A stretch of DNA of 64,000 nucleotides from positions 5,146,001 through 5,210,000 of the forward strand of contig CP099650.1 of the NCBI GenBank assembly GCA_024123915.1. Direction: 5' to 3'. The translations under genes and the position numbers were made by a program. Position 1 is the stretch's first letter. Each line of letters starts with the position of its first letter. Shown piece by piece: positions 10,892 to 61,186 of this stretch. The notes beneath the pieces are model-generated. The model saw only the letters and a program-made list of their open reading frames with translations, was not told the DNA's origin and searched no databases. Source of the DNA: Oxalobacteraceae bacterium OTU3CAMAD1 (GTDB lineage: Bacteria; Pseudomonadota; Gammaproteobacteria; Burkholderiales; Burkholderiaceae_D).

Positions 10892-10905
10892 TTGATCGCA
10901 GTCAA
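10892..10905 (+). promoter_or_regulatory. FNR/CRP-family box upstream of the EPS operon
   Basis: TTGATCGCAGTCAA matches TTGAT-N4-ATCAA at nine of ten defined positions. Its centre (10898.5) lies 41.5 bases before position 10940, and GACAAT at 10927-10932 is a fair -10 for a start there. This is class II activator geometry. A start at about 10940 would exclude translation from 10939. Confidence 0.55.
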
Positions 10906-10998
10906 GCCGCAATACGCTGGTCAGAAGACAATCAGTGCATGCCACGCACCATTGCGTTGGCAACCACAATGATTTCTTCGTTGAAGGTATTGCGCACC

Positions 10999-13050
10999 AT
11001 GCTCTATTTCACCTACAGCCCCGCCCCGCTTGCCCGCCTCCTCAGCGAGAAACTAATCGCCATCAGCCGCGCCGGCAAGAGCCTATTGATGTTCGGCGCC
11101 GACTGCCTGGCGCTGCCGCTGTGCCTGCAGTTGGCGCTGCTGGCCAGTGCCGGCGCCGGCGCCTATATCAATGCGCCGCCGGCCCTCACGCTGTTGCTGA
11201 CGGCCATGTCGATCGCCGCGCTGGCCATGAGCGACCTGTATTCGGCGGTGGTGCGCTACCTGGACCAGCGCATGCTGGCCATCGCCGGCCTCGGCCTGGG
11301 CGGCGCGGTGCTGGCGGTGTCGGCACTGACCATGGACCGCGACGACCAGCCGATGCCGTCCGGCGCGCTGGTGAACTACTGGCTGATCGCCATGTCCTAT
11401 CTGGTGGCCTCGCGCGTCGCCGTGCGCGCCTTCCTGCGCCGCCATACCCACGCGCCGGCGCAGGCGCGCGAACCGGTGGCCATCTACGGCGCCGGCGAGA
11501 CCGGCGCCCGGCTGGCGCAGGCCATGCGCGGCGATAGCCGCTACTGCCCGGTGTGTTTCATCGACGAGAAGTGCGGCGGCGAGCAGCGCACCGTCGGCGG
11601 CCTGCGCGTGTTCCCGCCCGAGCGGCTGGCCGAGATCGTCGCCGCCTCGTCGATCCGCCTGATCGTCGTCGCGCTGCCGGCCACCTCCGGCGAGCGGCTC
11701 GGCGCCGTGCTGCGCATGCTGCGCACCTCCGGCGTCAGCATCAAGTTCCTGCACGGCCTGCTCGACCTGGCCGACCACGCGCTGCGCCGGCAAGCCCTGC
11801 CGCGCGGCACGGGGGCGGGCCAGGCACCCGCGCATTTACCTGCTCATCTACCCGACATCCCGCTCGAACAGTTGCTGGGCCGCGCGCCGGTGCAGCCCGA
11901 CAGCGCGCTGTTCAGCCGCTGCGTGCGCGGCAAGAGCGTGCTGGTGACGGGCGCCGGCGGCTCCATCGGCAGCGAATTGTGCCGCCAGGTCGCCGGCCTG
12001 GGGCCGCGCCGCCTGCACCTGCTCGATCACTCCGAATACGCGCTCTATACGATACGCCAGGAGTTGCAGGCCACCTGGCCGCAACTGTCGGTGCGCGCCC
12101 ATCTGGGCTCGGTGTGCAATGAACAGCTGCTCGAACGCATCATGCAGGAGGACAGCATCGACACCATTTACCACGCCGCCGCCTACAAGCACGTGACGAT
12201 GGTCGAGACCAACCTGGTCGAAGGCTTGCGCAACAACGTCGTCGGCGCGCGCGCCGTCGCCAACATCGCCGCCAAATACCTGGTCGAGACGTGCGTGCTG
12301 GTGTCGAGCGACAAGGCGGTGCGGCCCAGCACCATCATGGGCGCCAGCAAGCGCCTGTCCGAGCTGGTGTTCCAGGCCGCCGCGCAGGCGTGCGCCGCGA
12401 GCGGCGACAGCCGCACCACGTTCAGCATGGTCCGCTTCGGCAACGTGCTGGGTTCGTCAGGCTCGGTGGTGCCGCTGTTCCGCCGCCAGCTGCAGCAAGG
12501 CGGTCCGCTGACCATCACCGACGCCGCCATGGAACGCTACTTCATGCTGATCCCGGAGGCGGCGCAGCTGGTGATCCAGGCCGGCGCGATGGCCGAGGGC
12601 GGCGAGGTGTTCGTGCTCGACATGGGCCAGCCGATCCGCATCGTCGACCTGGCGCGCAGCATGATCGCGCTGGCCGGGCTGACCGAGAAGACGGCCGAGC
12701 ATCCGCAGGGCGATATCGAGATCAGCTACGTCGGTCTGTTCCCCGGCGAAAAACTGCAGGAGGAACTGCTGACCGCCGACGGCGCGGAGCCGAGCCGCCA
12801 CCCGCGCATCCTGCGCATGAAGGAGCAGGCGTTGCCGCCGGCGGTGCTGGACCAGTACATCGAGCTGCTGTTGATCACCTGCGACACCAACGACCGCTGG
12901 CTGATCGAGGCCATGCTCAAGACCATCATGAACGAGTTCACGCCCCAGACCGGCGCCCGGACCGGCGACGCCGACGGCGAGGCCGCGCTGCGCGCGATCG
13001 CGCAGCTAAGCATGGCGCCGCCGGCGCCGGCGCAGGCCCAGGCGTCCTGA
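10999..13050 (+). CDS. Membrane-bound UDP-sugar 4,6-dehydratase, WbpM/PglF/CapD type
   Basis: A 683-residue inner-membrane enzyme. It converts UDP-GlcNAc to a UDP-4-keto-6-deoxy sugar, the entry step to bacillosamine, QuiNAc or fucosamine-type sugars. About four transmembrane helices occupy residues 25-135. A first Rossmann-like domain follows (VAIYGAGETGARLAQAM). The catalytic SDR domain starts at VTGAGGSIGSELCRQ near 317 and has SSDKAVRPSTIMGASKR near 435, with the family's Met in place of the usual Tyr. Start codons at 10939 and 10969 are possible, but the first sits on the predicted transcription start, so I use 10999. First gene of a 13-gene EPS operon. Confidence 0.9.
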   Translation: MLYFTYSPAPLARLLSEKLIAISRAGKSLLMFGADCLALPLCLQLALLASAGAGAYINAPPALTLLLTAMSIAALAMSDLYSAVVRYLDQRMLAIAGLGLGGAVLAVSALTMDRDDQPMPSGALVNYWLIAMSYLVASRVAVRAFLRRHTHAPAQAREPVAIYGAGETGARLAQAMRGDSRYCPVCFIDEKCGGEQRTVGGLRVFPPERLAEIVAASSIRLIVVALPATSGERLGAVLRMLRTSGVSIKFLHGLLDLADHALRRQALPRGTGAGQAPAHLPAHLPDIPLEQLLGRAPVQPDSALFSRCVRGKSVLVTGAGGSIGSELCRQVAGLGPRRLHLLDHSEYALYTIRQELQATWPQLSVRAHLGSVCNEQLLERIMQEDSIDTIYHAAAYKHVTMVETNLVEGLRNNVVGARAVANIAAKYLVETCVLVSSDKAVRPSTIMGASKRLSELVFQAAAQACAASGDSRTTFSMVRFGNVLGSSGSVVPLFRRQLQQGGPLTITDAAMERYFMLIPEAAQLVIQAGAMAEGGEVFVLDMGQPIRIVDLARSMIALAGLTEKTAEHPQGDIEISYVGLFPGEKLQEELLTADGAEPSRHPRILRMKEQALPPAVLDQYIELLLITCDTNDRWLIEAMLKTIMNEFTPQTGARTGDADGEAALRAIAQLSMAPPAPAQAQAS

Positions 13051-13126
13051 CGACGCCACGCCCGGCCGGGCCCTCGATGCGCCCGGGCCGGCAGCGTTCC
13101 TCCCAACCATTGCAAGGAGCACCATC

Positions 13127-14188
13127 ATGCGCCAGTTCACCCCCGCCGTCGTCGGCCGCAAAATGCGCTTCGCGCTGGTCGGTTGCGGCCGCATCGCGCA
13201 AAACCATTTCGCCGCGCTGGCCCAGCACGCCGACCGCTGCCAGCTGGTCGCCGTGTGCGACGTCGATCCGGCCGCGCTGTCGCGCGCCGCAGCGCAGACC
13301 GGCGCCACACCCTACTCGCGGCTCGACCAGATGCTGGCCAAGAGCGAGGTCGACGCCGTCATCATCACCACGCCGTCCGGCCTGCACCCCGAACAGGCGG
13401 TGCAAATCGCCGCCGCCGGGCGCCACGTGATCACCGAAAAGCCGATGGCCACGCGCTGGGAAGACGCCAAGCGCATGGTGTGCGCCTGCGACGCGGCCGG
13501 CGTGCGCATGTTCGTCGTCAAGCAGAACCGCCGCAACGCCACCTTGCAACTGCTGAAAAGCGCGGTCGACAAGAAGCGCTTCGGCCGCATCTACATGGTC
13601 AACCTGAACGTGTTCTGGACCCGGCCGCAAAGCTACTACAACAGCGCCGGCTGGCGCGGCACCTGGGAGTTCGACGGCGGCGCGTTCATGAACCAGGCCA
13701 GCCACTACGTCGACCTGATCGACTGGATCGTCGGCCCGGTCGAAAGCCTGCAGGCCTACACCGCCACCCTGGCGCGCGACATCGAGGTCGAGGACACCGG
13801 CGTCATCAGCCTGCGCTGGCGCAACGGCGCGCTCGGCTCGATGAACGTGACGATGCTGGCCTATCCGCACAACCTCGAGGGCAGCATCACCATCCTCGGC
13901 GAGAAAGGCACGGCGCGCATCGGCGGCGTCGCCGTCAACGAGGTGCAGCAATGGGACTTCGCCGAGCCGGACGAGGACGACGCGCGCGTGCGCGAAGCGA
14001 GCTACGCCACCACGTCGGTGTACGGCTTCGGCCACCCGCTGTACTACGACAACGTCATCAAGGTGCTGCGCGGCGAGGCCGAGCCGGAGACCGACGGCCG
14101 CGAAGGCTTGAAGTCGCTCGAGGTGCTGATCGCCGCCTACCGCTCGGCGCGCGACGGCCGCCGCGTGGCGCTGCCGCTGGATTACTGA
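13127..14188 (+). CDS. wbpB: Gfo/Idh/MocA oxidoreductase, WbpB/WlbA type
   Basis: A 353-residue NAD-dependent dehydrogenase. In the WbpB pathway it oxidises the C3 hydroxyl of UDP-GlcNAcA to a 3-keto sugar, ready for transamination. The N-terminal Rossmann fold reads [16 protein letters not shown] near residues 17-32. The EKPMAT motif near 104 holds the conserved active-site lysine. [20 protein letters not shown] near 184 is the substrate-side signature. An AAGGAG precedes the ATG. It is followed by WbpD-like and WbpE-like genes, the same set used to make UDP-2,3-diacetamido sugars in Pseudomonas and Bordetella. The specificity is inferred mainly from this gene set. Confidence 0.85.
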
Positions 14189-14213
14189 TATGAACGCGCA
14201 CAGGGAGGATGAC

Positions 14214-14798
<585 letters not shown>

Positions 14799-14834
14799 AC
14801 CCACCTTTGCCACAACCCGGCCACGGAGCCCCCC

Positions 14835-15923: not shown

Positions 15924-15932
15924 GACCCCGCC

Positions 15933-20438: not shown

Positions 20439-20445
20439 GGTTTTT

Positions 20446-26414: not shown

Positions 26415-28748
26415 TTACTTATACGCGCCGATGCTGACCGGCTGCATCGGCGTGCCCTCGATGTCGTACGCCGGCGCATAGGTGGTGGTGCCGGCGCCCT
26501 TGGCGGGCGAAGTGCTGCGCAGGTGCAGGTCGGGCGTTCCCGTACGGGTGTACGAGACGAACTGCGGATCGGCGCTGACCGTGCCGGTGGCCACCAGGCC
26601 GTTACGCAAACTGAAGTTGTAGTTGGTGTTCTGGTACACCAGGTTGTTGCGGTAGGTGTTGTGCGTACCAGTCTTGCCCTGTTCAGAGATGCCGTAGCGG
26701 TTATCGTAGACGATGTTGTTGACCACGTGGGTGTAGTCGGCGCCGGCGCTGCTGTGGTAGAAGTCGCCGCCGCCGACGATGATGCCGATCCCCGAGTTGG
26801 CCACAGTGTTGTTGGCGATGATGACGTTGGTGGCGTCATGCCACAAGTGGATCGCCCCCTGCGCGACGCGGTGGACGACGTTGCCGACCACGCTGCCCGT
26901 CGTGCTCACGTAGATGCCGTGCACATGGCTGCAGCCGGCGGGACCGATGTCGTAGACGAAGTTGTTGATGACATCGCCCTTGACGCCGTTGTAGTAGGAA
27001 TCGACGCCGATGGCCGAACCGCCGGTGCCGTCGCAAGCGATGGTCTGGGCGATGTGGTGCACGCGGTTGTTGCGGATGACATCGTAGGAGCCGCCGTTAT
27101 AGATGCCGCTGCGCCACTTGGTGCCGCTCTGGTGCGCGCTGCCGTCGATCTCGAAACCGTTGATCTCGACATAGTTGCCCCGGTTGTCCCAGGCCACGCT
27201 GCTGCTCGAGTTCGCGGGCGGAATGATCTTCGCGCCCCACTTGCTGGTGGAGACGTAGTAGATGCGTCCGTTCGCGGTGCCGTTGGCGTTGGTCCTGAAG
27301 CCGCCCGCGTAGTTGCCGGGCGCGACGTGCACCGTGGTGTTCGGCGAGGCCAGCGCGGCGGCGCGCGCGATCGTCTTCAGCGGCGAGCCCTGCGCGCCGG
27401 AGTTGCTGTCCGAGCCGCCGGTCGACACGTACAGGTGGTTGGCGGTGGTGGGCGTTGGCGTTGGCGTCGGCGTTGGCGTGGGGGTCGGGGTTGGCGTCGG
27501 CGTGGGTGTAGGCGTCGGCGTCGGCGTCGGCGTGGCGCCGCCGTACTCGTAGGCGCCGAGATCGTCGGCGGCGCCGGCCGGGCGGTCCCTGCCGTCGAAG
27601 TCGCGCGGCGGCGCGTCGGCCGCCAGGCCCTTGTCGATCGCCGGCGAAGTCGAGCGCAAATGGTAGTCGCCGCCGCCGGTGCGCACGTAGTTGACGAACT
27701 GCGGCGCCGCCGCGATGGTCGCCACCGCCACGCCCTTCAGGAGCAGATAGCCTTGGGATGACTGCTGAAACATCAGGTTGTTCGCATAGGTGTTGTGTGA
27801 GCCGATGTTGCCCTGTTCGACCACGCCGTAGACGGTGTCGTACACGATGTTGTTGGTCACGCGCGAGTTGTCGCCGGCCGTCGTCGCGTGATAGTAATCG
27901 CCGCTGCCCACCACCACGCCGGTGTGGGACGCGAAGATGGTGTTGTTGACGACGTCGACGCCAGAGGCGTCGTGCCACAAGCGCACCGCCGCGTTCGAGA
28001 CGCCGTAAATGACATTATTCTTGACATCCGTGCCCACGCTGTTGACATAGACACCGAACATGGTGCGGCAACCGTTGGCGCCGATGTCGTGCACCATATT
28101 GTCGCGCACGTCATGCGCGCTGCCCTTGAAATAGCTGTCGGCGCCGATGCCGCCGCCCGACGCGCAGGCGGCGCGTCCGATGTGGTGCACCCGGTTGCCG
28201 GACACGCCGCCGAACGAGCCGCCGGTGTAGATGCCGGTGGTCCACGCGGTGCCGGCGCGCGGCGCGCTGCCGTCGACCTCGAAACCGACGATGTCGACAT
28301 AGTTGCCGCGGTTGTCCCACGCCGCCGACGTGGTGGACGTGGCCGGCGGCACGATCTTCGCCCCCCACTTGCGGTCCGACACATACGTGATCCGCGCGGT
28401 GGCCGTGCCGCTGCTGTTGGTGACGAAGCCGCCGGCGTAGGCGCCGGGCGCGACGTGCACGATGGTGCCGGGCGTGGCCGCTTGCGATGCCCTGCTTATC
28501 GTCAAGAACGGCGCCGCCTGGGTGCCGGGGTTACTGTCTGAACCTGTGGTTGAAACATAGAGCTCGTTGGCGGCCGCCGCGCCGTTGTACGTGACGCTGG
28601 CGGCCAGCACGGGCGCTTGCGCCGCGGCGGCTTGCTTTCCTTCATCGCCGCCGCTGCCGCCGCCGCAAGCGGCCAGCAGCATTGCGCAGGCGCCCAGACC
28701 GATGGTCGTGGCGCTCCCTTGGGACAGGTAGTTGACAGAATTGTTCAT
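26415..28748 (-). CDS. Outer-surface lipoprotein with two tandem right-handed beta-helix domains and a Thr-Pro linker
   Basis: A 777-residue exported protein. The N-terminus carries a lipobox (MLLAAC) after a hydrophobic signal, followed by a Gly/Ser tether. Two homologous parallel beta-helix domains follow, about residues 60-390 and 435-777; compare GNYVDIVGFEVDGSAPRAGT with GNYVEINGFEIDGSAHQSGT. Many NN-x-V and NRVHHI turns mark the coils. They are joined by a Thr-Pro repeat linker. Such domains bind or cleave acidic polysaccharides. The ATG at 28748 has AGGA seven bases upstream, better than 28766. An FNR-type box lies 43 bases upstream. Its place next to wzc suggests it acts on the EPS; lyase, hydrolase or lectin cannot be told. 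Confidence 0.82.
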   Translation of the reverse strand: MNNSVNYLSQGSATTIGLGACAMLLAACGGGSGGDEGKQAAAAQAPVLAASVTYNGAAAANELYVSTTGSDSNPGTQAAPFLTISRASQAATPGTIVHVAPGAYAGGFVTNSSGTATARITYVSDRKWGAKIVPPATSTTSAAWDNRGNYVDIVGFEVDGSAPRAGTAWTTGIYTGGSFGGVSGNRVHHIGRAACASGGGIGADSYFKGSAHDVRDNMVHDIGANGCRTMFGVYVNSVGTDVKNNVIYGVSNAAVRLWHDASGVDVVNNTIFASHTGVVVGSGDYYHATTAGDNSRVTNNIVYDTVYGVVEQGNIGSHNTYANNLMFQQSSQGYLLLKGVAVATIAAAPQFVNYVRTGGGDYHLRSTSPAIDKGLAADAPPRDFDGRDRPAGAADDLGAYEYGGATPTPTPTPTPTPTPTPTPTPTPTPTPTPTTANHLYVSTGGSDSNSGAQGSPLKTIARAAALASPNTTVHVAPGNYAGGFRTNANGTANGRIYYVSTSKWGAKIIPPANSSSSVAWDNRGNYVEINGFEIDGSAHQSGTKWRSGIYNGGSYDVIRNNRVHHIAQTIACDGTGGSAIGVDSYYNGVKGDVINNFVYDIGPAGCSHVHGIYVSTTGSVVGNVVHRVAQGAIHLWHDATNVIIANNTVANSGIGIIVGGGDFYHSSAGADYTHVVNNIVYDNRYGISEQGKTGTHNTYRNNLVYQNTNYNFSLRNGLVATGTVSADPQFVSYTRTGTPDLHLRSTSPAKGAGTTTYAPAYDIEGTPMQPVSIGAYK
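27451..27534. repeat. Fourteen-unit hexanucleotide repeat encoding the Thr-Pro linker
   Basis: Fourteen near-identical hexamers (consensus GGCGTC on the plus strand, ACGCCG in the coding sense), each coding Thr-Pro. Because the unit is six bases, gain or loss of units would change linker length without a frameshift. Confidence 0.9.
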
Positions 28749-28784
28749 CAGACTTTCCTCGTTCATGAAGTGAATGAGGAAGGT

Positions 28785-28798
28785 TTGATCTGAATCAA
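28785..28798 (-). promoter_or_regulatory. Perfect FNR/CRP-family box upstream of the beta-helix lipoprotein gene
   Basis: TTGATCTGAATCAA on the plus strand is a perfect TTGAT-N4-ATCAA; the palindrome extends one base each side. It is centred about 43 bases before the ATG, and a TATAGA lies just upstream on the coding strand, so the box would cover the start of transcription. That position suggests repression rather than class II activation. Confidence 0.6.
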
Positions 28799-28887
28799 AT
28801 TCTATAGTTCAATGCTTTTAGAAAAAAAATTCTGGCAAGACATTCTTACAACAAAAGAATAGGCACGAATAAGTTCAAAAACAGCGC

Positions 28888-28913
28888 AAAAAAAAACGGC
28901 GCCCGCGCGCCGT
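28888..28913 (-). terminator. Rho-independent terminator after the wza-wzc operon
   Basis: On the coding strand ACGGCGC, a four-base loop GCGG and GCGCCGT make a seven-base stem, followed at once by eight or more T. It lies 23 bases after the stop of the Wzc-like gene and separates that operon from the beta-helix gene. Confidence 0.9.
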
Positions 28914-28935
28914 GGGGTTCAACCGGGCCTGCTTG

Positions 28936-31146
28936 CTAGGCGTCGTTGAACACCACGCCGTGCGGCGCGATGCCGGCCTGGTTGAGCCGTTTGACTGACG
29001 CGTTGAGCTGGCTCTCCGTGGTCACGCCGGCGCGGGTGACGAGGAAGACGGCGCCGGCGTGGGCGCCGACGACCAGCGCGTCGGCCGCCTCCATCACCGG
29101 CGGCGCCGTCATGAGCACCACGTCGTAGCGGGCGCCGAGCGACTCGAGCAGGCTGGCCAGATGACGGTGCTGCAGCAGCTCCGTCTGCTGCGGCAGCACG
29201 CTGCCGCAAGGAATGAAATCAAGATGGTCGGCAACCCCGTGGCGCACCGCCATGTGCGGCTGCAGCGCGCCGGCCAGGCACTCGGCCAGCCCGCCGCAAC
29301 GCTCGATGCCGAAATACTCGTGCAGCCGGCCGTCGCGCAGGTCGGCGTCGATCAGCAAGGTGCGCTTGCCCCCCGAGGCCATCAGCAGCGCCAGGTTGAC
29401 CGACACGAACGAGGCGCCCACGCGCCGCGTCGGCCCCAGGCAGCTGACGACGTTGTTGCGGCTGTGCGGCAACACGAATTGCAGCGCGGCGCGGAACGCC
29501 CGCAGGCTCTCGGCGGCCGCGTCGTCCGGCGCCGCCTGCGCCAGCAGCAGCGGCGCCCGCTTGCGCGCCTGCCGCCGCAGGCGGTCCTGGCTGCGGCTGT
29601 GCGGGATGGTCGCGTGCACCGTGCGCGCGCCCAGCATCGCCTCGATGCGCTCGGGGTCGTCGATGCCGCCGCCCACGGCCTTGCTGGCGAAGGCCAGCAG
29701 CGCGCCCAGGAACAGGCCGGTGACCATGCCCAACACTACGATCAGCGAGCGGTTCGGCTTGAGCGGGCGCTCCGGCGCCACCGGCATGTCGACCATGCGC
29801 ACGTTGCCGACCCGCCCCACCGCCACCAGGCGCAACTGTTGCGCCGTGTTCAGCAGCTCGGTGTACAGGTCGGTGCTGACCTTGACGTCGCGCGCCAGGC
29901 GCGCCTGTTCCTGCTCGACCAGCGGCAGGCGCTTGATGCGCGCCTCGAGCTCGTCGATCTCGCGCAAGGTCTCGCGGCTCTGCTGGTTCAGCGCCTGCAG
30001 CAGCGGATGCTCGTCGGTGTAGCGCCCCAGCAGCTCGGCGCGCTTTTGCGTCAGGGTGCTGCGGCGCGTCTGCGCCGCCGCCAGCGTGTCGAGCGCGATG
30101 CGCACTTCCTGCTCCAGGTTGACGGTGGCGTGGCTGCTGCGGTAGCCGTTGTAGCTGGCCTCGGCGCTTTCGAGCTGGTGGCGCAGCACCGGCAACTGGC
30201 GGTCGAGGAAGGCCAGCGTCTTTTGCGCCTCCTCGGTGCGCCGCGCCAGGTTTTGCCGCATGTATTCGCTGCCGATCTCGGTCAGCGTGGCGTACACCTG
30301 CTGCGGGTTGGCGCCGTGCAGCTTGACCGCGATGACCCCCGACTGCTTGCCTTGCTCGGCGATCTGCAGCGAGCGCTGCACCTGTTCGAGCGCGGCCAGG
30401 CGCGAGCTGCGGCGCAAGGTGAAGCGGGCGCCGGGGTTGGCGCGCAGCCGCGTCACCACCAGGTCGATGGCGCCGTCGGGGCCGGCGGCGTGCGCCGCCA
30501 GTCCCGTCTCGCCCTCCAGCACGGGGCGCCCCTTGCCGTCGCCGAGCCGGTAGCGTCCGCCGCCGAGCGCGGTGATGGTGAAGTCATGGTTGTACATGGC
30601 GTCGGGCACGTCGAAGCTGGCGACCTCGATTTTCTCGCCGCCCCACACATAGCCGCCACGGCCGAACAGGCCGGGCGCGGACAACGCGCTGCCGCGGCGC
30701 GCCGCGATCCACTCGCCGCCCAGCGGGAAATAGCGCGGCCGCGCGTCGATGTACAGGCGCAGGGTATCGACCGCGCGCGCCACCACCAGCCGCGAGTGCA
30801 GCAGCTCCATCTCGGCGATCGCCGCCTTCTTGGTTTCGAACAGCGACGAGACGTCGTTGAGGATGTTCTTCGACGTGTTCGGGGTGTCCTCCTCCACGTG
30901 CAGCAGCATGTTGGCCTCGTACACCGGGCGCGCGGCCAGCGCGTAGGCCAGCGCCGCCAGGGTGCACAGCGCGGCCACGCCGAGGATCAGCCAGCGCCGC
31001 GCGACCAGCGTCTGGAAGTACGAGCGCCACGCCAGCGCGCCGGGATCCGGCTCGGGCAGCGGGTCGACCCGCTCGATCAGTTGGGTCGGCGCGGCGATAC
31101 CGCGCAGCGCGCGCAGTTGCGGCGGGTTGTCGTAAGCTTCATTCAT
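28936..31146 (-). CDS. Wzc-like polysaccharide co-polymerase with degenerate kinase domain
   Basis: A 736-residue inner-membrane chain-length protein of the PCP-2a group, working with Wza and Wzy. The first transmembrane helix is near residues 45-65 (WLILGVAALCTLAALAYALA), the periplasmic coiled-coil part runs to about 470, and the second helix is RSLIVVLGMVTGLFLGALLA. The C-terminal 170 residues have the tyrosine-kinase fold, with LLIDADLRDGRLHEYFG intact. The Walker A region reads GPTRRVGAS, lacking the lysine of GKS/T. The Walker B region reads VVLMTAPPV, lacking the aspartate. There is no C-terminal tyrosine cluster. Kinase activity is therefore unlikely. The ATG at 31146 lies seven bases after the Wza gene. 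Confidence 0.85.
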   Translation of the reverse strand: MNEAYDNPPQLRALRGIAAPTQLIERVDPLPEPDPGALAWRSYFQTLVARRWLILGVAALCTLAALAYALAARPVYEANMLLHVEEDTPNTSKNILNDVSSLFETKKAAIAEMELLHSRLVVARAVDTLRLYIDARPRYFPLGGEWIAARRGSALSAPGLFGRGGYVWGGEKIEVASFDVPDAMYNHDFTITALGGGRYRLGDGKGRPVLEGETGLAAHAAGPDGAIDLVVTRLRANPGARFTLRRSSRLAALEQVQRSLQIAEQGKQSGVIAVKLHGANPQQVYATLTEIGSEYMRQNLARRTEEAQKTLAFLDRQLPVLRHQLESAEASYNGYRSSHATVNLEQEVRIALDTLAAAQTRRSTLTQKRAELLGRYTDEHPLLQALNQQSRETLREIDELEARIKRLPLVEQEQARLARDVKVSTDLYTELLNTAQQLRLVAVGRVGNVRMVDMPVAPERPLKPNRSLIVVLGMVTGLFLGALLAFASKAVGGGIDDPERIEAMLGARTVHATIPHSRSQDRLRRQARKRAPLLLAQAAPDDAAAESLRAFRAALQFVLPHSRNNVVSCLGPTRRVGASFVSVNLALLMASGGKRTLLIDADLRDGRLHEYFGIERCGGLAECLAGALQPHMAVRHGVADHLDFIPCGSVLPQQTELLQHRHLASLLESLGARYDVVLMTAPPVMEAADALVVGAHAGAVFLVTRAGVTTESQLNASVKRLNQAGIAPHGVVFNDA

Positions 31147-31153: not shown

Positions 31154-32281
31154 CTATGGTCTGGTGGTGGCGCCGACGGCGGACGACAGCTCGCCCGGGA
31201 ACAGCTGGCTGATCGCGCGGTGCCAGTTGGCCAGCGGCGAGGCGGCCACGTACACAACATCCTTGGCGCGCAGCTCGAAGCGCTCGGCCAGCGCCAGCGC
31301 CCGCGACGGCCGGGCGTCGAGCCGGTACACGCGCGGCCCCTGCGCCGTCTGCCGCACCACGTACACCTGGCCGGCGTCGCCGCTCTGCGGATTGATGCCG
31401 CCGACCTCGCCGAGCGCCTCGTTCAGGGTCAGGCGGCCGTCGTGCATGGTCAGCGAGCGCGGTTGCAGCACCTCGCCGGCGACGAACACCTTGCTCTCGT
31501 CGCGCGGCGGCACCCGCACGATGTCGCCGTTGACCAGCATCACGGCGGCGGCATGGCGGCCGTCGCGCAGCGCGCGGATCAGGTCGACCTTGTGGCGCCG
31601 GCCCGCGCGCTCGACGGTGATGCGGCTCTGGTCGGCGCTGGGCGTCAGGCCGCCGGCGCGGTTGATCGCCTCGAGCAGGGTCATCGGAATATCGTTGACG
31701 GTTTGCAGGCCCGGCGTGCGCACCTCGCCGTCGATGTAGACCCGCTGGCTGCGGTAGGCCTGCACACTGAGCGTGACGCGCGGATCGCGGAAGTAGCGCG
31801 TCAGCCGCTTGGTCAGCAAGGCGCCGGCCTGCTCGCGCGTCAGCCCGGCGAAGTCCATGGTGCCGGCGAACGGAAAATGCAGCTTGCCCTGCTGGTCGAT
31901 GACGAAGCTGGCGGCCGGCGGCCCCAACCCGGCGCCGTCGACGCCCTGGTCGCGCGCGACCGCGCCGGTCAGTTCCGGATGGTCCCACAAGGTGATCGCC
32001 AGCACGTCGCCGACACCCAGGATGTAGGTGTACACGCCGGGCTCGGTGACCGCCAGGTTGCCTAGGTCCTGGCCGGCCGCCGGCGCGCCGGCGTTGCCGC
32101 GCTGCTCGGCGTCGAGCCATTGCTCTGTGATGGGTATGACTTCGGCGTCGTCCGGCGCCGGCGCGCTGTGCATGCTGGTGGCGCATCCGCCCAGCAACAC
32201 GCACAGCGCGAGCGCCGCCGGCAGATATGCGGGGCGGAAATTAAAGCGGAAATGAAAAAAGGATGGTGCGACGTTGTGCAT
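31154..32281 (-). CDS. wza: Wza-type outer-membrane polysaccharide export lipoprotein
   Basis: A 375-residue outer-membrane lipoprotein forming the EPS exit channel. The signal peptide ends at the lipobox VLLGGC. The poly-export domain follows (YILGVGDVLAITLWDHPEL near residue 80, then IDQQGKLHFPFAGTMDFAGL). SLBB-type domains follow: VYIDGEVRTPGLQTVNDIPM and VFVAGEVLQPRSLTMHDGRL. A GGAGG stands six bases before the ATG at 32281; a reading from 32341 would add 20 residues before the signal peptide. It leads a two-gene operon with the Wzc-like protein and has an FNR-type box about 58 bases upstream of the ATG. Confidence 0.93.
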   Translation of the reverse strand: MHNVAPSFFHFRFNFRPAYLPAALALCVLLGGCATSMHSAPAPDDAEVIPITEQWLDAEQRGNAGAPAAGQDLGNLAVTEPGVYTYILGVGDVLAITLWDHPELTGAVARDQGVDGAGLGPPAASFVIDQQGKLHFPFAGTMDFAGLTREQAGALLTKRLTRYFRDPRVTLSVQAYRSQRVYIDGEVRTPGLQTVNDIPMTLLEAINRAGGLTPSADQSRITVERAGRRHKVDLIRALRDGRHAAAVMLVNGDIVRVPPRDESKVFVAGEVLQPRSLTMHDGRLTLNEALGEVGGINPQSGDAGQVYVVRQTAQGPRVYRLDARPSRALALAERFELRAKDVVYVAASPLANWHRAISQLFPGELSSAVGATTRP

Positions 32282-32332
32282 GACAGGCCTCCGGAAGCTC
32301 GACCAGAGTAGATCGCGTCCCGGTGTGCGGCC

Positions 32333-32346
32333 TTGTTTCACATCAA
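32333..32346 (-). promoter_or_regulatory. FNR/CRP-family box upstream of wza
   Basis: On the coding strand TTGATGTGAAACAA matches TTGAT-N4-ATCAA at nine of ten defined positions. Its centre is 41.5 bases before 32298, and TACTCT at 32310-32305 is a possible -10 for a start there, giving class II activator geometry. Confidence 0.55.
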
Positions 32347-49411: not shown

Positions 49412-50710
49412 TCAAGCGGCGCGGATATTCGCCACGCTGTCCTTGCCGTGCTCCGAGACCGGCGCCTGCTCTTCATCGAGCGCGCCTTCCCACTTGGCGA
49501 CGACGGCGGTGGCCACTGCGTTGCCGACGGCGTTGGTGGCGGAACGGCCCATGTCCAGGAACTGGTCGATGCCCATCAACAGCAGCAGGCCCGCTTCCGG
49601 GATATTGAATTGATTGAGCGTGGCGGCGATGACCACCAGCGATGCGCGCGGCACGCCCGCGATGCCCTTGGACGTCACCATCAACAGCAGCAGCATGGTG
49701 ATCTGGGTGCCCAGCGACAGTTCGATGCCATAGGCCTGCGTGATGAACAGCACGGCGAACGTGCAGTACATCATCGAGCCATCCAGGTTGAACGAATACC
49801 CCATCGGCATGACGAAGCTGGAGATCTTGCGCTGCACGCCGAATTGGTCCAGCGCCACCAGCAGTTTTGGGTAAGCGGCCTCCGAGCTGGCGGTCGAAAA
49901 CGCCAGCAGGAACGGTTCGCGGATCAACACGATCAGGCGGAACACACGCTTGCCGATGAAGGCGAAGCCGCCCAGGATCAGCAGCGTCCACAGACACACC
50001 AGGCCCAGATAGAAGCCGCCCATGAACTTGGCGAAGGTGACCAGGATGCCTAGGCCGTTGGTGGTGATGACCGACGCCATCGCCGCGAACACCGCCAGCG
50101 GCGCCAGCTTCATGATGCTGCCGGTGATGCGCAACATGACCTGCGCCAGCTGGTCGACGCCGGCGGTCAGCTTGGCCGCCGATTGTCCCAGCGCGCCCAG
50201 GGCGCTGCCGAAGAAGATCGCGAACACCAGCACTTGCAGGATCTCGTTGTTGGCCATCGCCTCGATCGGCGACTTCGGCACCATGTGGCTGACGAATTCC
50301 TTGAGCGTGAAGGCCGAGGTTTTCAGGCCGGTGGTGGCGTCGATCGGTGGCAGCGGCAGGCCCAGATGGGTACCGAGCTGCATCAGGTTCGACAGCACCA
50401 TGCCCAGGGTCAGCGACACCAGCGAGGCGATCACGAACCAGCCCATGGCCTTCATGCCGATGCGGCCGGCGGCCTTGCCGTCGCCCAGATGCGCGATGCC
50501 GACCGCCAGGGTCGAAAACACCAGCAGCGAAATGATCATTTTGATCAGACGCAGGAACACGTCCGTCACGATCGAGATATGGCCGGCGATGTCGGCGGCG
50601 GCCTTTTTATCGGGGAAAGCCTGGTGGCACGCGTAGCCGACGGCTACGCCCAACACCATGGCGATCAGGATGTACAGCGTTAGTGGGCGCTTTTTTTTCA
50701 CTTTTATCAT
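49412..50710 (-). CDS. dctA: C4-dicarboxylate transporter, DctA
   Basis: A 432-residue inner-membrane symporter of the dicarboxylate/amino acid:cation (DAACS) family, taking up succinate, fumarate and malate. Family hallmarks are AFSTASSEAAYPKLLVALDQ (the serine-rich hairpin), MPMGYSFNLDGSMMYCTFAV, and GIAGVPRASLVVIAATL. The end GMGIDQFLDMGRSATN-like region (MGIDQFLDMGRSATNAVGNA) holds substrate-binding Asp and Asn. The ATG at 50710 directly abuts GGAG, which is too close; a GTG at 50701 has better spacing and may be the true start. A sigma-54 promoter lies about 45-60 bases upstream. Confidence 0.95.
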   Translation of the reverse strand: MIKVKKKRPLTLYILIAMVLGVAVGYACHQAFPDKKAAADIAGHISIVTDVFLRLIKMIISLLVFSTLAVGIAHLGDGKAAGRIGMKAMGWFVIASLVSLTLGMVLSNLMQLGTHLGLPLPPIDATTGLKTSAFTLKEFVSHMVPKSPIEAMANNEILQVLVFAIFFGSALGALGQSAAKLTAGVDQLAQVMLRITGSIMKLAPLAVFAAMASVITTNGLGILVTFAKFMGGFYLGLVCLWTLLILGGFAFIGKRVFRLIVLIREPFLLAFSTASSEAAYPKLLVALDQFGVQRKISSFVMPMGYSFNLDGSMMYCTFAVLFITQAYGIELSLGTQITMLLLLMVTSKGIAGVPRASLVVIAATLNQFNIPEAGLLLLMGIDQFLDMGRSATNAVGNAVATAVVAKWEGALDEEQAPVSEHGKDSVANIRAA

Positions 50711-50769: not shown

Positions 50770-50800
50770 GCGCGCCAAAGCGAAAAATAGCCACTCAAGC

Positions 50801-50814: not shown

Positions 50815-50913
50815 ACAATTCTTCATGGAAATGATGATTGCAGCGTGATAGCGGGACGAAAATCTGGACCTGTCGCGGGCCGCCTGTATGGAAAGTTGGA
50901 CGACGGCGCCGTA

Positions 50914-53862: not shown

Positions 53863-54037
53863 CACCACCCCGTATCGATCTGGAAGTCCCCCCAAGCATG
53901 CCACCCCCGAGCTCATCCGTCCAGCACGGGGATCGGCCACGCACGGCGTCACGTATAATCGAGCCGCGCCGACGCCGATGCGACTTGCATCGCCTTCTCC
54001 ACCCCGGAACAACCTGACACTGCGAACATAAACACCG

Positions 54038-55366: not shown

Positions 55367-56054
55367 AATTTTCACGGAACAGATCTCATTCCCGAACAGC
55401 GACAACATCGTTGTCGTCGGCCTTGGCCGCTTCGGCGGCGCCGTCGCCGAGGCGCTGATGCGCATGGGCCACGACGTCATGGGCATCGACCGCGACACGG
55501 AGCTGGTGCAGCTGTGGGCCGATAAACTGACCCACGCGGTGCAGGCCGATTCCACCAACGAGGACGTGATGCGCCAATTGGGCGTGGCCGAGTTCTCGCA
55601 CGCGATCGTCGGCATCGGCACCGACCTCGCGGCCAGCCTAATGTCGCTGATGGTGCTCACGGAACTGGGCATCAAGGATATCTGGGTCAAGGCGCTGACG
55701 CCGGAGCACGGCCAGATCGCCAGGCGGGTGGGCGCCCACCACATCGTCTATCCGGAGGCCGACATGGGCGCGCGCGTGGCGCACCTGATCACCGGACGCA
55801 TGATGGACTACATCGAGTTCGACGACGGCTTCGCCATCGCCAAGATCCGCGCGCCGGACCTGACGCACAATATGACCCTGGCGCAGTCGCACGTGCGCGA
55901 AAAATTCGGCGTCACCGTGGTCGGCGTCAAGCGCCCCGGCGAGGACTTCCAGCACGGCCTGCCCGAAACCCATGTGTTGCCCGACGACCTGCTGATCGTC
56001 TCCGGCGCCACGCGCAAGATCGAACAATTCGCCAGCAGCGGCCGCAAGCGTTGA
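55356..56054 (+). CDS. ktrA: Regulatory NAD-binding subunit, KtrA/TrkA family
   Basis: A 232-residue cytosolic RCK protein that gates the KtrB channel. The N-terminal RCK-N domain reads NIVVVGLGRFGGAVAEALMR near residues 17-36, with the acidic ribose ligand in GIDRDTE. The RCK-C domain covers the last 80 residues (TLAQSHVREKFGVTVVGVKR and then LPDDLLIVSG). The start is a TTG at 55356, seven bases after GAGGAG. It overlaps ktrB by 11 bases. Confidence 0.93.
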   Translation: MLGKIFTEQISFPNSDNIVVVGLGRFGGAVAEALMRMGHDVMGIDRDTELVQLWADKLTHAVQADSTNEDVMRQLGVAEFSHAIVGIGTDLAASLMSLMVLTELGIKDIWVKALTPEHGQIARRVGAHHIVYPEADMGARVAHLITGRMMDYIEFDDGFAIAKIRAPDLTHNMTLAQSHVREKFGVTVVGVKRPGEDFQHGLPETHVLPDDLLIVSGATRKIEQFASSGRKR

Positions 56055-56193
56055 GTCATTTCCTACAGGGACTGTTTTGTAACTGAAAGGTTTCATATAA
56101 GTAAAAGCTATCGATTTCATACAAATAATTGATTTTGATAATTGTGTCACAGCCGTTAAGGTTTGCTTTCACACATCAAAAGGGAGATACCCA

Positions 56194-57756: not shown

Positions 57757-57855
57757 AACACGTAGGGCGGATTAGGCGGCACGCCGTAATCGGCCATGCC
57801 CGCGTCAACGCGACGCATGCATGGCCGATTACGCTTCGCTAATCCGCCCTACGTG
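57755..57855. repeat. Double REP element abutting the catalase stop codon
   Basis: AAAACACGTAGGG at 57755-57767 begins an outer inverted repeat ending CCCTACGTG. Two palindromes with GGCGGATTA/TAATC(G/C)GCC arms lie inside. The first bases are part of the catalase TAA stop codon. It fills the gap to the convergent lyase gene. Confidence 0.87.
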
Positions 57856-57885
57856 GATCCGAGGTATGCGTACGTCGCGGGACCA

Positions 57886-59193
57886 TCACTGCGCCGACTC
57901 GAACGCCCCCAAATCCGGCGCCGCACCCTTGAACGGCAACCCGACATTGACGCCCTTGCCGATCAAATCGCTGGTCGAGCGCAAACGGTAACTGCCCAAC
58001 ACCGGCAAGCTGCCATCCGCCTGTCGCGGCGCATCCCAGCCGCTGGCCGACACATTCTCGAAGTCCCCGTCGCTGATCTGCACCGGCAACGTCCACGAAT
58101 TATTCGCCATATCCAAGCCCGCCGTATTCGACGTCGCCGTGCCCTTGTACGCCAGATTGTTGCGCAGGTTCCCGAAGTTCACCGCCGACCCATCCGGCGC
58201 GATCCCCAGCATGTTGTAGTTCACCCCGTTGCTGAAGGACGTATTGTTGAAGAAATCAATCGCCAACGGATGGTGGTTGGCATAAAAACCCGCCGCCTTG
58301 TTGGCGAACGCCACCGAAAACCGCACCGTGTGCTTGACCCCGTTGGCCACATACGCGCCGCCATAACCACCCGCCTTGATGCCGTTGCCATTGCCCGCCG
58401 CCAGCGGCGTGGTCGTCCCCGGCAAATAACCATGCTGCCACGCCCACGAATTTTCGATCGTCACCGGCGAGAACGCGTTGATCAGATCGAACCCGTCATC
58501 GGTGTTCATCCACGCGCGGCAACCCCGGAACACATTGCCCGGCTGGTTGGCCTTGACGTGCGCACCGAAGCCGTCGGCGCTCTGCCCGGCCCCGTTCGAT
58601 GTGTACGGATCGTAGTTGTGATGCGAATCGCTGTTCAGCACCAGATTGTTGGAACCGTTCTGGATGAACAACCCCGGCCCCATGTTGTGATGCAAATTGA
58701 GCAGCTCGAAGACGTTGTTGCTGCCGCTGTTCCACACGCCCCACGACTCGTGGTTCAGCCGGTTGCCCGGCTGCTGCGGCGCGCCGGTCACCTCCAGCCC
58801 CTTCAGGTGGACCCAGCTGGCCGTGACATTGAAACCTTTGACGCGGCAATCATCCTTCATCGCGGAAAAATCGAACACCGGCGTCTCGCCCGGATACGCC
58901 CAGTAGCGGATCGGCTGGCCGGAGCTTCCGCTCTTGTTGAGCGTGATGGCGTTGACGATGGCCGTCCGGCTGGCGCAGGCCTCGACGCCGGCCGTATACG
59001 CATACTTACCTCCACGGTAGTAGACGGTATCGCCGGCCTGGGCCTGCGTTTGCGCACGCGCGATCGAGGCCCATGGCGCCGCTTGCGTGCCGGCGGCGTT
59101 GTCGCTGCCACCGGGGGCGACGTAATAGTTGGTAGCGAACGCCGGCGCGGCGGCGAACGAGAGGAACAGAAGCGCGCTGAGTGGTGTTTTCAT
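57886..59193 (-). CDS. Exported right-handed beta-helix polysaccharide lyase, PL9-like
   Basis: A 435-residue secreted protein with a signal peptide (MKTPLSALLFLSFAAAPAFA). The mature domain is a parallel beta-helix, starting NYYVAPGGSDNAAGTQAAPW. The calcium and catalytic region of family PL9 pectate lyases is visible: MNTDDGFDLINAFSPVTIEN, then SWAWQHGYLPG, and GNGNGIKAGGYGG, in which the Lys would be the catalytic base. The start could also be 59202 or 59214, but only the one at 59193 gives a compact signal peptide. It would cleave pectate-like or other uronic polymers. The adjoining genes are not clearly linked. Confidence 0.83.
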   Translation of the reverse strand: MKTPLSALLFLSFAAAPAFATNYYVAPGGSDNAAGTQAAPWASIARAQTQAQAGDTVYYRGGKYAYTAGVEACASRTAIVNAITLNKSGSSGQPIRYWAYPGETPVFDFSAMKDDCRVKGFNVTASWVHLKGLEVTGAPQQPGNRLNHESWGVWNSGSNNVFELLNLHHNMGPGLFIQNGSNNLVLNSDSHHNYDPYTSNGAGQSADGFGAHVKANQPGNVFRGCRAWMNTDDGFDLINAFSPVTIENSWAWQHGYLPGTTTPLAAGNGNGIKAGGYGGAYVANGVKHTVRFSVAFANKAAGFYANHHPLAIDFFNNTSFSNGVNYNMLGIAPDGSAVNFGNLRNNLAYKGTATSNTAGLDMANNSWTLPVQISDGDFENVSASGWDAPRQADGSLPVLGSYRLRSTSDLIGKGVNVGLPFKGAAPDLGAFESAQ

Positions 59194-59248
59194 CTCTCCC
59201 ATTGTAGAGAGCACCGGAGCGTTCTTACCACACCGAACGGAAAAATCA

Positions 59249-59998
59249 TCAAACTGATCGGCTCCGCCGCGCGAACGCCGCCTTCGTCATCGGCGCGCGC
59301 GACTCCAGCAGAGCGCCCAGCAGATGCTGGGCGTGGCGCAGCAGCGCCGGATGGGCCGCGTCGGCCGGGTGCAGGCTCAACCGCACCAGCCCGGCCGACG
59401 CCATGCACGCCGCCTGCGCCGTCGCCAGGCGCGGCGACAACTCGCGTCCGCTGCGGTTGCGCGCCGCGTAGACCAGGCTGGGCGACCAGATGCTGCGTTG
59501 CGGCGCCAAAAGGTGGAAATGGGTCCAGGTGGTGGTGTAGGAAAACGGCGCCTTGCGCAGCGCCAGCCAGGCGCCGCTTCCCAGCAGCCAGGCCGGCGGC
59601 ACGAAGCCGTCGACCGGCCAGCCCCGGCGGCCGAACCACTGCAGTCCCAGCGCCAGCAACAATCGGCTCTGGGCCGCGCTCAGCGCCGAAAACTCGCCTT
59701 CGTGGCGGGTGTAGACGCCGCGCAGCCAGCGCTTGCGCCAGCCGGACGCGGGCGGCCCGCTGTCCAGATGCCGGTAGCCGTGCAGCGCCAGCTCGTGGCC
59801 GCGCGCGAGCAAGGCCGTAAGCATCGCCTCGTAGCCGGGGTCCGTTCGATCGTGGCCGTGATAGCACGGCACCACCAGCAAGGTCAGTGGAATATCGGCC
59901 ACCTCCCCTATCGCAGCGAGCAAGCGCTGGCAGGCCGGCCAGGTGGCCGGCGCCACGTCGTGGATCGAGACGCACAGCGCCTTGCGCTCAGTCGGCAA
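59249..59998 (-). CDS. DUF2334-type polysaccharide deacetylase-like protein
   Basis: A 249-residue cytosolic protein of the NodB-like deacetylase superfamily. The start region ALCVSIHDVAPATWPACQRL holds the metal-site His-Asp, LTLLVVPCYHG and HELALHGYRHLDSGP hold further His and Asp residues, and VDGFVPPAWLLGSGAWLAL is typical of DUF2334. The start is a TTG at 59998 with a strong GGAGG six bases upstream. It overlaps the GT4 gene by 11 bases, suggesting that both act on one glycan or glycolipid. Substrate unknown. Confidence 0.82.
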   Translation of the reverse strand: MPTERKALCVSIHDVAPATWPACQRLLAAIGEVADIPLTLLVVPCYHGHDRTDPGYEAMLTALLARGHELALHGYRHLDSGPPASGWRKRWLRGVYTRHEGEFSALSAAQSRLLLALGLQWFGRRGWPVDGFVPPAWLLGSGAWLALRKAPFSYTTTWTHFHLLAPQRSIWSPSLVYAARNRSGRELSPRLATAQAACMASAGLVRLSLHPADAAHPALLRHAQHLLGALLESRAPMTKAAFARRSRSV

Positions 59999-61118
59999 GA
60001 CAGCCCTCCGCGTCGGGTTCGGCCCGCCGTCGCGACGCCAGCAAACCGGTGTAGCGCTCCATCAGTTGCGGCATGATGCGGTTCCAGTCGAAATGCGCGC
60101 ACGCCTTGTGGCGGGCGTTGGCGCTCAGCCGCGCCATGTCCGAGCCGAACAGCGCCGCGATGCCGTCGCTCAAACTGTTCGCGCAGTCGGGCCGCACCAC
60201 CAGGCCCGTGCCGGGATCGATCAGCTCGGCCACGCCGCCGCCCGTGCCCAGCACCGGCAGGCCGCAGGCCATCGCCTCCAGCGCGATCAGGCCGAAGGTT
60301 TCGCCGTCGGCGGGATGGGTCAGCAGATCGCAGCTGGCCAACAGCCGCGCCAGCCGGCCGGGGTCGCGCTCGAACGGCAATATGGTGCTGTTGGGTGAAG
60401 CCGGCAACGCGCTGCCGCCGCCGATCAGCAGCAAGTGATACGGACGGCCGAGGCGCCGCACCGCCTCGATCAACACGCCCAGTTTTTTCTGCGGCGTGAA
60501 GCGGCCCGCGTAGACCAGCAGCCTGGTCCCGGCGGGCAGGCCGAGACGCTCGCGCAATCCCGCGTCGCGCCGCGCCGGACTGAATATGCCGGTGTCCACG
60601 CCAAGCGGCTGGTGCACGGCGTCCGCCACGCCCAGTTGCTCCAGCCGGTGCACCATCAGCCTGCTCGGCGCGAGCACCAGATCGAACTGGTTATAGAGAT
60701 GCCGTAGATATCTGCCGGCGATGGCGGCCGCGCCGGGGCCAAAGCGGTCACCCACCAGCGCATGCAAATCGGAATGATAAAAGCCGATCAGCGGCACGTG
60801 CAGCCGGCGCCGCACATGCAGCGCGGCCAGCGCGCACGGCCCGGCGTCGCCGACCTCCAGCAGATCGGGCCGGCAGCGCTGGACGATACGCGCAGGCACC
60901 CGCAATGAGCGCGGCAGACGATAGCCATTGATGCCAGGAATCCCGATGCCGGGCAAGGCGATCACCGACGGCGACAGGCTGCAAGCCTTCACGCTTGAGC
61001 TCAGTATCGTATGGCGCACATGGGTGTTACGCGCAAGCCAGCTGGACTTGGCGTTGAGATAATTGCTGATGCCGCCACCCTCGGCGGCATAGTACATGGT
61101 GATGTCTAGAACATGCAT
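59988..61118 (-). CDS. GT4-family glycosyltransferase paired with a deacetylase
   Basis: A 376-residue GT-B glycosyltransferase. The N-terminal domain begins MHVLDITMYYAAEGGGISNY, with the glycine-rich acceptor loop. The C-terminal domain has VYAGRFTPQKKLGVLIEAVR, LTHPADGETFGLIALEAMAC with the E-x7-E pair, and GLPVLGTGGGVAELID. These are full GT4 features. The ATG at 61118 gives the canonical start; 61154 adds 12 residues. It is coupled to the downstream deacetylase gene, and a perfect FNR-type box lies about 61 bases upstream of the ATG. Confidence 0.88.
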   Translation of the reverse strand: MHVLDITMYYAAEGGGISNYLNAKSSWLARNTHVRHTILSSSVKACSLSPSVIALPGIGIPGINGYRLPRSLRVPARIVQRCRPDLLEVGDAGPCALAALHVRRRLHVPLIGFYHSDLHALVGDRFGPGAAAIAGRYLRHLYNQFDLVLAPSRLMVHRLEQLGVADAVHQPLGVDTGIFSPARRDAGLRERLGLPAGTRLLVYAGRFTPQKKLGVLIEAVRRLGRPYHLLLIGGGSALPASPNSTILPFERDPGRLARLLASCDLLTHPADGETFGLIALEAMACGLPVLGTGGGVAELIDPGTGLVVRPDCANSLSDGIAALFGSDMARLSANARHKACAHFDWNRIMPQLMERYTGLLASRRRAEPDAEGCLAD

Positions 61119-61172
61119 AAGGGGGCTTCGGGTAGGAAGACCCCACGTTAGCATTCGCTATCCGCTCAATGT

Positions 61173-61186
61173 TTGATCTAGATCAA
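61173..61186 (-). promoter_or_regulatory. Perfect FNR/CRP-family box upstream of the GT4-deacetylase operon
   Basis: TTGATCTAGATCAA is an exact TTGAT-N4-ATCAA palindrome. Its centre lies 41.5 bases before 61138. On the coding strand TGCTAACGT provides an extended -10 (TG-N-TAACGT at 61152-61145), giving class II activator geometry. Confidence 0.7.

What the first reader, a model, noticed from the sequence alone, without database searches (positions are those of the whole stretch)
10892..61186. Four EPS-related transcription units share FNR/CRP-type boxes
TTGAT-N4-ATCAA boxes stand at 10892-10905 (wbpM operon, one mismatch), 28785-28798 (beta-helix lipoprotein, perfect), 32333-32346 (wza-wzc, one mismatch) and 61173-61186 (GT4/DUF2334 pair, perfect). 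A 10-base-defined motif is expected about 0.06 times in 64 kb of even composition, and less at this high GC, yet two perfect ones occur, both next to glycan genes. Three boxes are at -41.5 from a start that has a usable -10. I infer an EPS regulon under an FNR-, Anr- or Clp-like activator, which ties the distant GT4 pair to the EPS locus. I did not scan all coding sequence for further copies.
Basis: partly seen in the sequence, partly recalled or inferred. Interest (0 to 1): 0.82.

Follow-up and report, generated by a model that had tools for sequence, protein, structure and literature searches.

The report
FNR-like switches before slime-polymer genes
Soil bacteria of the Duganella/Massilia group carry, in front of key slime-polymer genes, a conserved docking site of the kind used by oxygen-sensing gene switches, which may tie slime production to such a switch; two of the four reported sites look like something else.

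Summary
All four boxes are where stated; a fifth (49566) lies inside a gene. The stated chance expectation is too low: the genome holds 21 perfect boxes (0.18 per 64 kb), so density in the window is modest evidence (P about 0.014). Comparison with relatives decides. The wza box is real: 57 of 80 Oxalobacteraceae wza loci have TTGA[TC]-N6-CAA followed at exactly 21 or 22 nt by TA[CG]N[CG]T, none at spacings 12-20 or 23-33: a class II CRP/FNR-type promoter. The wbpM box (TTGA[TC]-N4-GTCAA) is kept in 9 of 11 homologues. The regulator is not settled: at wza the promoter-proximal half is never ATCAA in Duganella, Massilia and Rugamonas (0 of 29), while before the COX1-family oxidase gene (ccoN), used as an FNR-type control, it is in 26 of 27. 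The 'GT4/DUF2334 pair' resembles GpgS/GpgD, which make a glucosaminyl phospholipid, not EPS; its canonical FNR box is almost confined to four close Duganella. The lipoprotein box is conserved but not at an activator position; it stands just before a hairpin over the ribosome-binding site. A CRP/FNR-type control of wza and wbpM is well supported; one regulon of all four units is not.

The parts
32333..32346 (-). CRP/FNR-type box of the wza-wzc unit, TTGATGTGAAACAA
   Evidence: class II site present in window and in 7 of 7 fetched relatives and in 57 of 80 named loci
32305..32310 (-). -10 of wza, TACTCT, 22 nt after the box
31154..32281 (-). wza (polysaccharide export lipoprotein)
28936..31146 (-). 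wzc (Wzc-type tyrosine kinase)
10892..10905 (+). CRP/FNR-type box of the wbpM unit, TTGATCGCAGTCAA
10927..10932 (+). conserved GACAAT, probable -10 of wbpM, 21 nt after the box
10999..13050 (+). wbpM-like gene (Polysacc_synt_2), first of a + strand EPS gene run to about 26338
28785..28798 (-). palindromic box upstream of the lipoprotein gene, TTGATTCAGATCAA; not at an activator distance
28784..28811 (-). invariant TGAAC and TCAAA elements around and in the box (TGAACY-N17-TCAAA); function unknown
28755..28781 (-). conserved hairpin that pairs the ribosome-binding site of the lipoprotein gene
26415..28748 (-). beta-helix lipoprotein gene (start taken at the ATG behind the GAGGAAAG)
61173..61186 (-). 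canonical FNR box before the GT4 gene, TTGATCTAGATCAA
61145..61150 (-). -10 of the GT4 gene, TAACGT
59988..61118 (-).
   Evidence: NF053787, 372.8 bits, cut-off 480
59249..59998 (-). GpgD-like deacetylase (DUF2334)
   Evidence: NF053788, 226.5 bits, cut-off 280
49566..49579 (+). fifth one-mismatch match, inside a gene; taken as chance

Best explanation
The wza-wzc promoter, and probably the wbpM promoter, are class II promoters of a CRP/FNR-superfamily activator: a dimer at about -41.5 stands in for the -35 element and brings sigma-70 RNA polymerase to a -10 that lies 21-22 nt further on. Shown here: the site, its strand and its exact spacing are conserved across Oxalobacteraceae. Inferred: the protein is one of the three proteins of this genome with an FNR-type recognition helix (two with the cysteines for an oxygen-labile Fe-S cluster), so that EPS genes rise at low oxygen; the deviant polymerase-proximal half at wza would make the site weak or specific to one paralogue. 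The GpgS/GpgD-like lipid pair carries an ordinary FNR class II box in a small Duganella clade and is a separate member of the general FNR regulon. The lipoprotein box does not sit where an activator would; that gene is probably controlled otherwise, possibly by repression and by the hairpin over its ribosome-binding site.
For: wza: TTGAT-N6-CAA on the coding strand in 43 of 80 upstreams (1 on the other strand; reversed motif 0; base shuffles mean 0.34, max 2; permuted motifs mean 0.39, max 10); each of the 43 loci has TANNNT at 21 or 22 nt; with TTGA[TC] and TA[CG]N[CG]T, 57 of 80, no other spacing from 12 to 33, and 1 at 22 nt in about 1.02 Mb of the rest of the loci, both strands. Window and 7 of 7 fetched relatives carry it. 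wbpM: 9 of 11 homologues, fixed 21 nt to GACAAT. Genome: 16 class II sites of the form TTGAT-N6-CAA-N21/22-TANNNT against 3 for the reversed pattern, two of them in this window, P = 0.0086. Same architecture before the oxidase gene (27 of 30 loci). Canonical Fnr over its cut-off plus two paralogues.
Against: Right half at wza is ATCAA in 0 of 29 Duganella/Massilia/Rugamonas sites against 26 of 27 before the oxidase gene, and in one Massilia group the left half is TTGAC too: a canonical FNR homodimer is not the obvious reader. 23 of 80 loci lack even the relaxed site. wbpM is missing in 2 of 11. No expression, binding or 5' end data; oxygen response is inference. The genome has 12 CRP/FNR-family proteins, most with unknown sites. 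The relaxed pattern was chosen after seeing the strict hits, and the loci are related by descent.
Confidence: 0.6

Rival explanations
1. A dedicated CRP/FNR-family protein other than FNR, with its own recognition sequence TTGAY-N6-CAA, activates wza (and perhaps wbpM) in answer to another signal such as cyclic di-GMP; the likeness to the FNR box is a family resemblance.
For: Conserved non-FNR right half (0 of 29 ATCAA); TTGACGTGCGCCAA shared by 13 Massilia/Telluria loci; 12 CRP/FNR-family proteins in the genome, five of them with a VRRE-type helix of unknown target; precedent of Bcam1349, a c-di-GMP-responsive CRP/FNR protein that binds EPS promoters in Burkholderia (PMC3584217, passages); a GGDEF-EAL gene lies directly upstream of wza.
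Against: No CRP-family gene in the window; Noviherbaspirillum sites read GTCAA/CTCAA (9 of 9), nearer to FNR; wbpM and the spacing fit FNR as well.
Confidence: 0.3
2. One reading: one FNR-, Anr- or Clp-like activator runs all four units as a single EPS regulon that includes the GT4 pair.
For: All four boxes exist and three have a -10 at 21-22 nt.
Against: GT4 pair is GpgS/GpgD-like; its box is kept in 4 of 6 and found in 1 of 27 further loci; the lipoprotein box has no -10 at the class II distance and stands before a hairpin over the ribosome-binding site; wza and oxidase-type boxes differ.
Confidence: 0.07
3. The four boxes are chance matches in a genome where the motif is common.
For: Against the genome's own rate the window is only mildly rich (P = 0.014 perfect, 0.066 at up to 1 mismatch); one of five sites is inside a gene.
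Against: Conservation with fixed spacing at wza and wbpM and in the lipoprotein leader.
Confidence: 0.03

Closest known systems
FNR/Anr regulons and class II FNR promoters (TTGAT-N4-ATCAA centred at -41.5; consensus recalled)
   Same: Half-site TTGAT, 14-bp box, 21-22 nt to the -10; same layout before the oxidase gene in this genus; canonical Fnr in the genome
   Different: Right half at wza is never ATCAA in Duganella/Massilia/Rugamonas; target is EPS export
Fnr1/Fnr3 hybrid half-sites of Herbaspirillum seropedicae (PMC5934665; abstract, section 19 and passages seen)
   Same: Same family of bacteria, several Fnr paralogues, promoters with unlike half-sites, class II layout
   Different: There the deviating positions are 1, 6, 7 and 14, here 10 and 11; 'polysaccharide' and 'biofilm' do not occur in that main text
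Bcam1349 control of the Bcam1330-1341 EPS cluster, Burkholderia cenocepacia (PMC3584217; passages seen)
   Same: A CRP/FNR-family protein binds EPS promoters
   Different: Signal there is c-di-GMP; no binding sequence was seen in the passages; orthology of any protein here was not tested
FNR and capsule in Klebsiella pneumoniae (PMC6828653, PMC12309544; abstracts seen)
   Same: FNR linked to a surface polysaccharide
   Different: One paper reports repression, partly through RmpA/RmpA2, the other positive control of mucoviscosity; other organisms and genes
gpgSDF of Pseudomonas aeruginosa (PMC12713373; abstract and passages seen)
   Same: Adjacent glycosyltransferase and deacetylase of the same NCBIfam models
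   Different: Scores below the equivalog cut-offs; the next gene here is a PelN-like beta-helix protein; 'oxygen' and 'Anr' do not occur in that main text

Membership tests
Class II CRP/FNR-type promoter (wza) | Box with fixed spacing (21-22 nt) to a sigma-70 -10 | tested here: met
   57 of 80 loci, no other spacing from 12 to 33
Class II CRP/FNR-type promoter (wza) | Transcription start about 41 nt behind the box centre | not testable with these tools
   needs 5' end mapping
FNR regulon (wza) | Symmetrical TTGAT-N4-ATCAA site | tested here: not met
   right half ATCAA in 0 of 29 Duganella/Massilia/Rugamonas sites; control 26 of 27
FNR regulon (wbpM) | FNR/Anr-type site conserved at the class II distance | tested here: met
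   TTGA[TC]-N4-GTCAA in 9 of 11, 21 nt to GACAAT
FNR regulon (GT4/gpgS-like) | Site conserved in orthologues | tested here: inconclusive
   4 of 6 in close relatives, 1 of 27 further loci
FNR regulon (lipoprotein gene) | Box at an activator position | tested here: not met
   no -10 at 21-22 nt; box end is 36 nt before the start codon with a hairpin between
FNR regulon (all units) | Expression depends on Fnr and low oxygen | not testable with these tools
   no expression data
GpgS/GpgD (GlcN-phosphatidylglycerol synthesis) | Score over the curated equivalog cut-offs | tested here: not met
   372.8 of 480 and 226.5 of 280 bits; both are the best models and cover nearly the full length
Oxygen-sensing FNR (candidate regulators) | C-x2-C-x5-C plus a central cysteine, E-x-x-S-R helix | tested here: met
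   L011 and L009 have both; L010 has the helix but no such cysteines; only L011 is over the Fnr cut-off
ECF-sigma promoter (lipoprotein gene) | Motif forms a regulon in the genome | tested here: not met
   TGAACY-N17-TCAAA: 2 places, reversed control 2

The most novel reading that the evidence does not exclude
Across Oxalobacteraceae, EPS export (wza) is driven by a class II CRP/FNR promoter with a deliberately unlike pair of half-sites (canonical TTGAY upstream, non-FNR NNCAA next to the polymerase), read by an FNR-paralogue heterodimer or by an unknown EPS-dedicated CRP/FNR protein, so that EPS answers to another threshold or signal than the respiratory FNR regulon.
Probability: 0.4. Interest if true: 0.62.

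Novelty: new variant of a known kind. Interest (0 to 1): 0.5.

Why it matters
It predicts a specific, testable regulatory input to slime (EPS) production in a large group of soil and plant-associated bacteria. Among the papers listed by six searches of the held library (several lists were capped) I saw none on FNR control of EPS in Duganella, Massilia or Herbaspirillum. The conserved asymmetry of the wza box, set against symmetrical boxes before the oxidase gene in the same genus, is a natural test of how half-site identity sets the response of CRP/FNR promoters. It also separates the EPS genes from the GpgS/GpgD-like lipid pair, which the box had seemed to join to them.

Tried and rejected
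An ECF-sigma promoter at the lipoprotein gene looked attractive (TGAAC and TCAAA invariant in 19 of 19 rows) but the motif has only 2 places in the genome, equal to its reversed control. TATAGA as the lipoprotein -10: present in the Duganella/Rugamonas rows, not in the Massilia rows. No Rfam family in the window; no sigma-70 consensus promoter in 28700-29000 and one terminator-like site, no more than shuffles give. A shared GCCG flank behind the wza and wbpM boxes was dropped: it is out of register by one base and not fixed at wbpM. A regulator gene linked to the locus: no CRP-family gene in the window.

Limits and rows dropped. One search found Wza homologues in 12 of 80 genomes; I read the upstreams of 8 (own and seven), not those of G001, G007, G025 and G034. 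One search found the GT4 protein in 8 of 80; 6 were read (not G060, G079). In one search the 27 new loci were read, of 111 of 392 genomes with a match. In one search, 6 of 21 loci with a lipoprotein match were left out because the match did not begin at the N-terminus. In one search, 3 of 30 oxidase loci had no strict site (they read TTGAC...ATCAA). One search lists only the first places of 250, so the one-mismatch sites were not classified. In one search assumed wza starts were offset for some relatives and G041 seemed to lack a site; one search shows it. My gene caller is a simple codon-usage script. My notes say the -10 of the GT4 gene is always 22 nt away; it is 22 in the window and 21 in G042.
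Full report
What is there. The four boxes are in the sequence as reported. A scan at up to one mismatch gives a fifth, 49566-49579, inside a called gene. Against dinucleotide shuffles the window looks strongly enriched (5 sites, mean 0.43, largest 3), but the better yardstick is the genome: 21 perfect sites and 250 at up to one mismatch in 7,481,272 bp. On that scale the window is only moderately unusual (P = 0.014 and 0.066). The reversed pattern gives 1 and 38, so the motif itself is real in this genome. Of the 19 perfect sites outside the window, 17 lie outside genes called by my simple script. Ten neighbouring proteins were scanned against Pfam; among them are a COX1-family oxidase (ccoN by its context, recalled), a PAS/MCP receptor, a universal stress protein and a U32-family protein, the kind of genes known from FNR/Anr regulons (recalled).

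Which organism. The window therefore comes from a Duganella-like bacterium. The genome encodes 12 proteins over the HTH_Crp_2 cut-off. Three have an FNR-type helix (E-x-x-S-R): a canonical Fnr with C-x2-C-x5-C and a central cysteine (L011, 267.3 bits, cut-off 228), a divergent one with the cysteines (L009, 146.9) and one without them (L010, 155.7). L014 has EHFSR, L012 the CRP-like RETVTR. The meaning of the helix residues is recalled.

wza. In 80 named loci (the best 80 of 278) I read up to 560 nt upstream of the Wza match. TTGAT-N6-CAA occurs in 43 of 80 upstreams: 48 sites on the coding strand, 1 on the other; reversed motif 0; base shuffles mean 0.34, largest 2; permuted motifs mean 0.39, largest 10. 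Each of the 43 loci has a TANNNT at 21 or 22 nt behind such a box. Allowing TTGAC and asking for TA[CG]N[CG]T, 57 of 80 loci have the pair, 40 at 21 nt and 17 at 22 nt, none at any other spacing from 12 to 33; the rest of the same loci, about 1.02 Mb read on both strands, gives 1 at 22 nt and 3 at other spacings. The relaxed form was chosen after seeing the strict hits and the loci are related, but the spacing is what the -41.5 hypothesis predicts. The window and 7 of 7 fetched relatives have it at 22 nt. 23 of 80 loci lack it.

Is it FNR? As a control I took the oxidase gene from 30 loci of the genus (the best of 56 genomes with a match, of 60 searched): 27 have the strict class II form, with right half ATCAA in 26 and GTCAA in 1. 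At wza in Duganella, Massilia and Rugamonas the right half is ATCAA in 0 of 29 (AGCAA 12, GCCAA 5, TACAA 4, AACAA 3, others 5; Fisher 4e-15). In Noviherbaspirillum it is GTCAA or CTCAA (9 of 9); among the remaining five sites one is ATCAA (L107). In one Massilia group the left half is TTGAC as well. So the wza site has a conserved weak or different half next to the polymerase. Unlike half-sites have a precedent in Herbaspirillum seropedicae, where Fnr3-Fnr1 heterodimers are proposed (PMC5934665: abstract, section 19 and passages), though the deviating positions differ. A dedicated CRP/FNR protein, as Bcam1349 for a Burkholderia EPS cluster (PMC3584217, passages), is the main rival. Only three places in this genome fit TTGAY-N6-CAA-N21/22-TACNCT: the PAS/MCP receptor, one at 4,473,842 not followed up, and wza.

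wbpM. TTGA[TC]-N4-GTCAA is present in 9 of 11 homologues (8 with TTGAT), 21 nt before an invariant GACAAT, inside a strongly conserved block that also holds an invariant GCTGGTCAG in the spacer. The two without it are the most distant of the set (G024, G017).

GT4/DUF2334 pair. The best NCBIfam models are N-acetylglucosaminyl phosphatidylglycerol synthase and its deacetylase, the GpgS and GpgD of Pseudomonas aeruginosa (PMC12713373: abstract and passages). Scores are below the curated cut-offs, so I call them GpgS/GpgD-like. They point to a phospholipid rather than EPS. The box is canonical and at the class II distance in the window; it is kept in own and G042 (perfect) and in G015 and G018 (one mismatch), and absent in G041 and G034 (4 of 6). 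Of 27 further loci 1 has a box (L173, 22 nt before TAGTGT). This looks like a recent FNR input to a widespread lipid pair.

Lipoprotein. The box is perfect in 10 and within one mismatch in 17 of 19 orthologues; L114 and L162 have lost its left half. But the box ends 36 nt before the likely start codon, there is no -10 at the class II distance, and the space between holds a hairpin that pairs the ribosome-binding site: 85.9% of cells paired against at most 50.9% when slid, two pairs with compensatory changes (28 of 500 shuffles reach this), pair types not above shuffles. The own clade uses a shifted register; short-leader z-scores run from -2.1 to -5.9 in eight sequences, while the larger region of the window gives only -1.0. 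The RNA case is good but not closed. TGAAC and TCAAA never vary. If a CRP/FNR protein binds here it would more likely repress.

Verdict. A conserved CRP/FNR-type control of wza and wbpM is well supported; which protein, and whether it senses oxygen, is open. Joining all four units into one EPS regulon is not supported.

Noticed in passing
window 28746-28786 (-) and 18 orthologues: Conserved leader hairpin that pairs the ribosome-binding site of the beta-helix lipoprotein gene, with some compensatory changes; no Rfam match.
   Followed up: partly
window 57886-59202 (-): A PelN-like pectate lyase (704.3 bits, cut-off 740) follows the GpgS/GpgD-like pair, where Pseudomonas aeruginosa has the proposed flippase gene gpgF.
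   Followed up: no
window 10905-10932 (+): Invariant GCTGGTCAG in the spacer between the wbpM box and its -10 in 9 of 9 aligned homologues; could be a second protein site.
   Followed up: no
L144, L147, L148, L152, L154, L155, L158, L159, L161: In Noviherbaspirillum and relatives the wza box and -10 stand some 290-530 nt before the Wza match, which suggests a long leader or an uncalled gene between.
   Followed up: no
L030 (G000:C1:2266500-2272500): A perfect FNR box precedes genes for a universal stress protein, a response regulator and then the cysteine-less FNR paralogue, all on one strand: a possible FNR cascade.
   Followed up: no
window 32381-35077 (-): A GGDEF-EAL protein is encoded just upstream of wza on the same strand, suggesting c-di-GMP input at this locus.
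   Followed up: no
G000:C1:4473842-4473882 (-), L256: One of only three places in the genome with the wza-like pair TTGAY-N6-CAA-N21/22-TACNCT; its gene was not identified.
   Followed up: no
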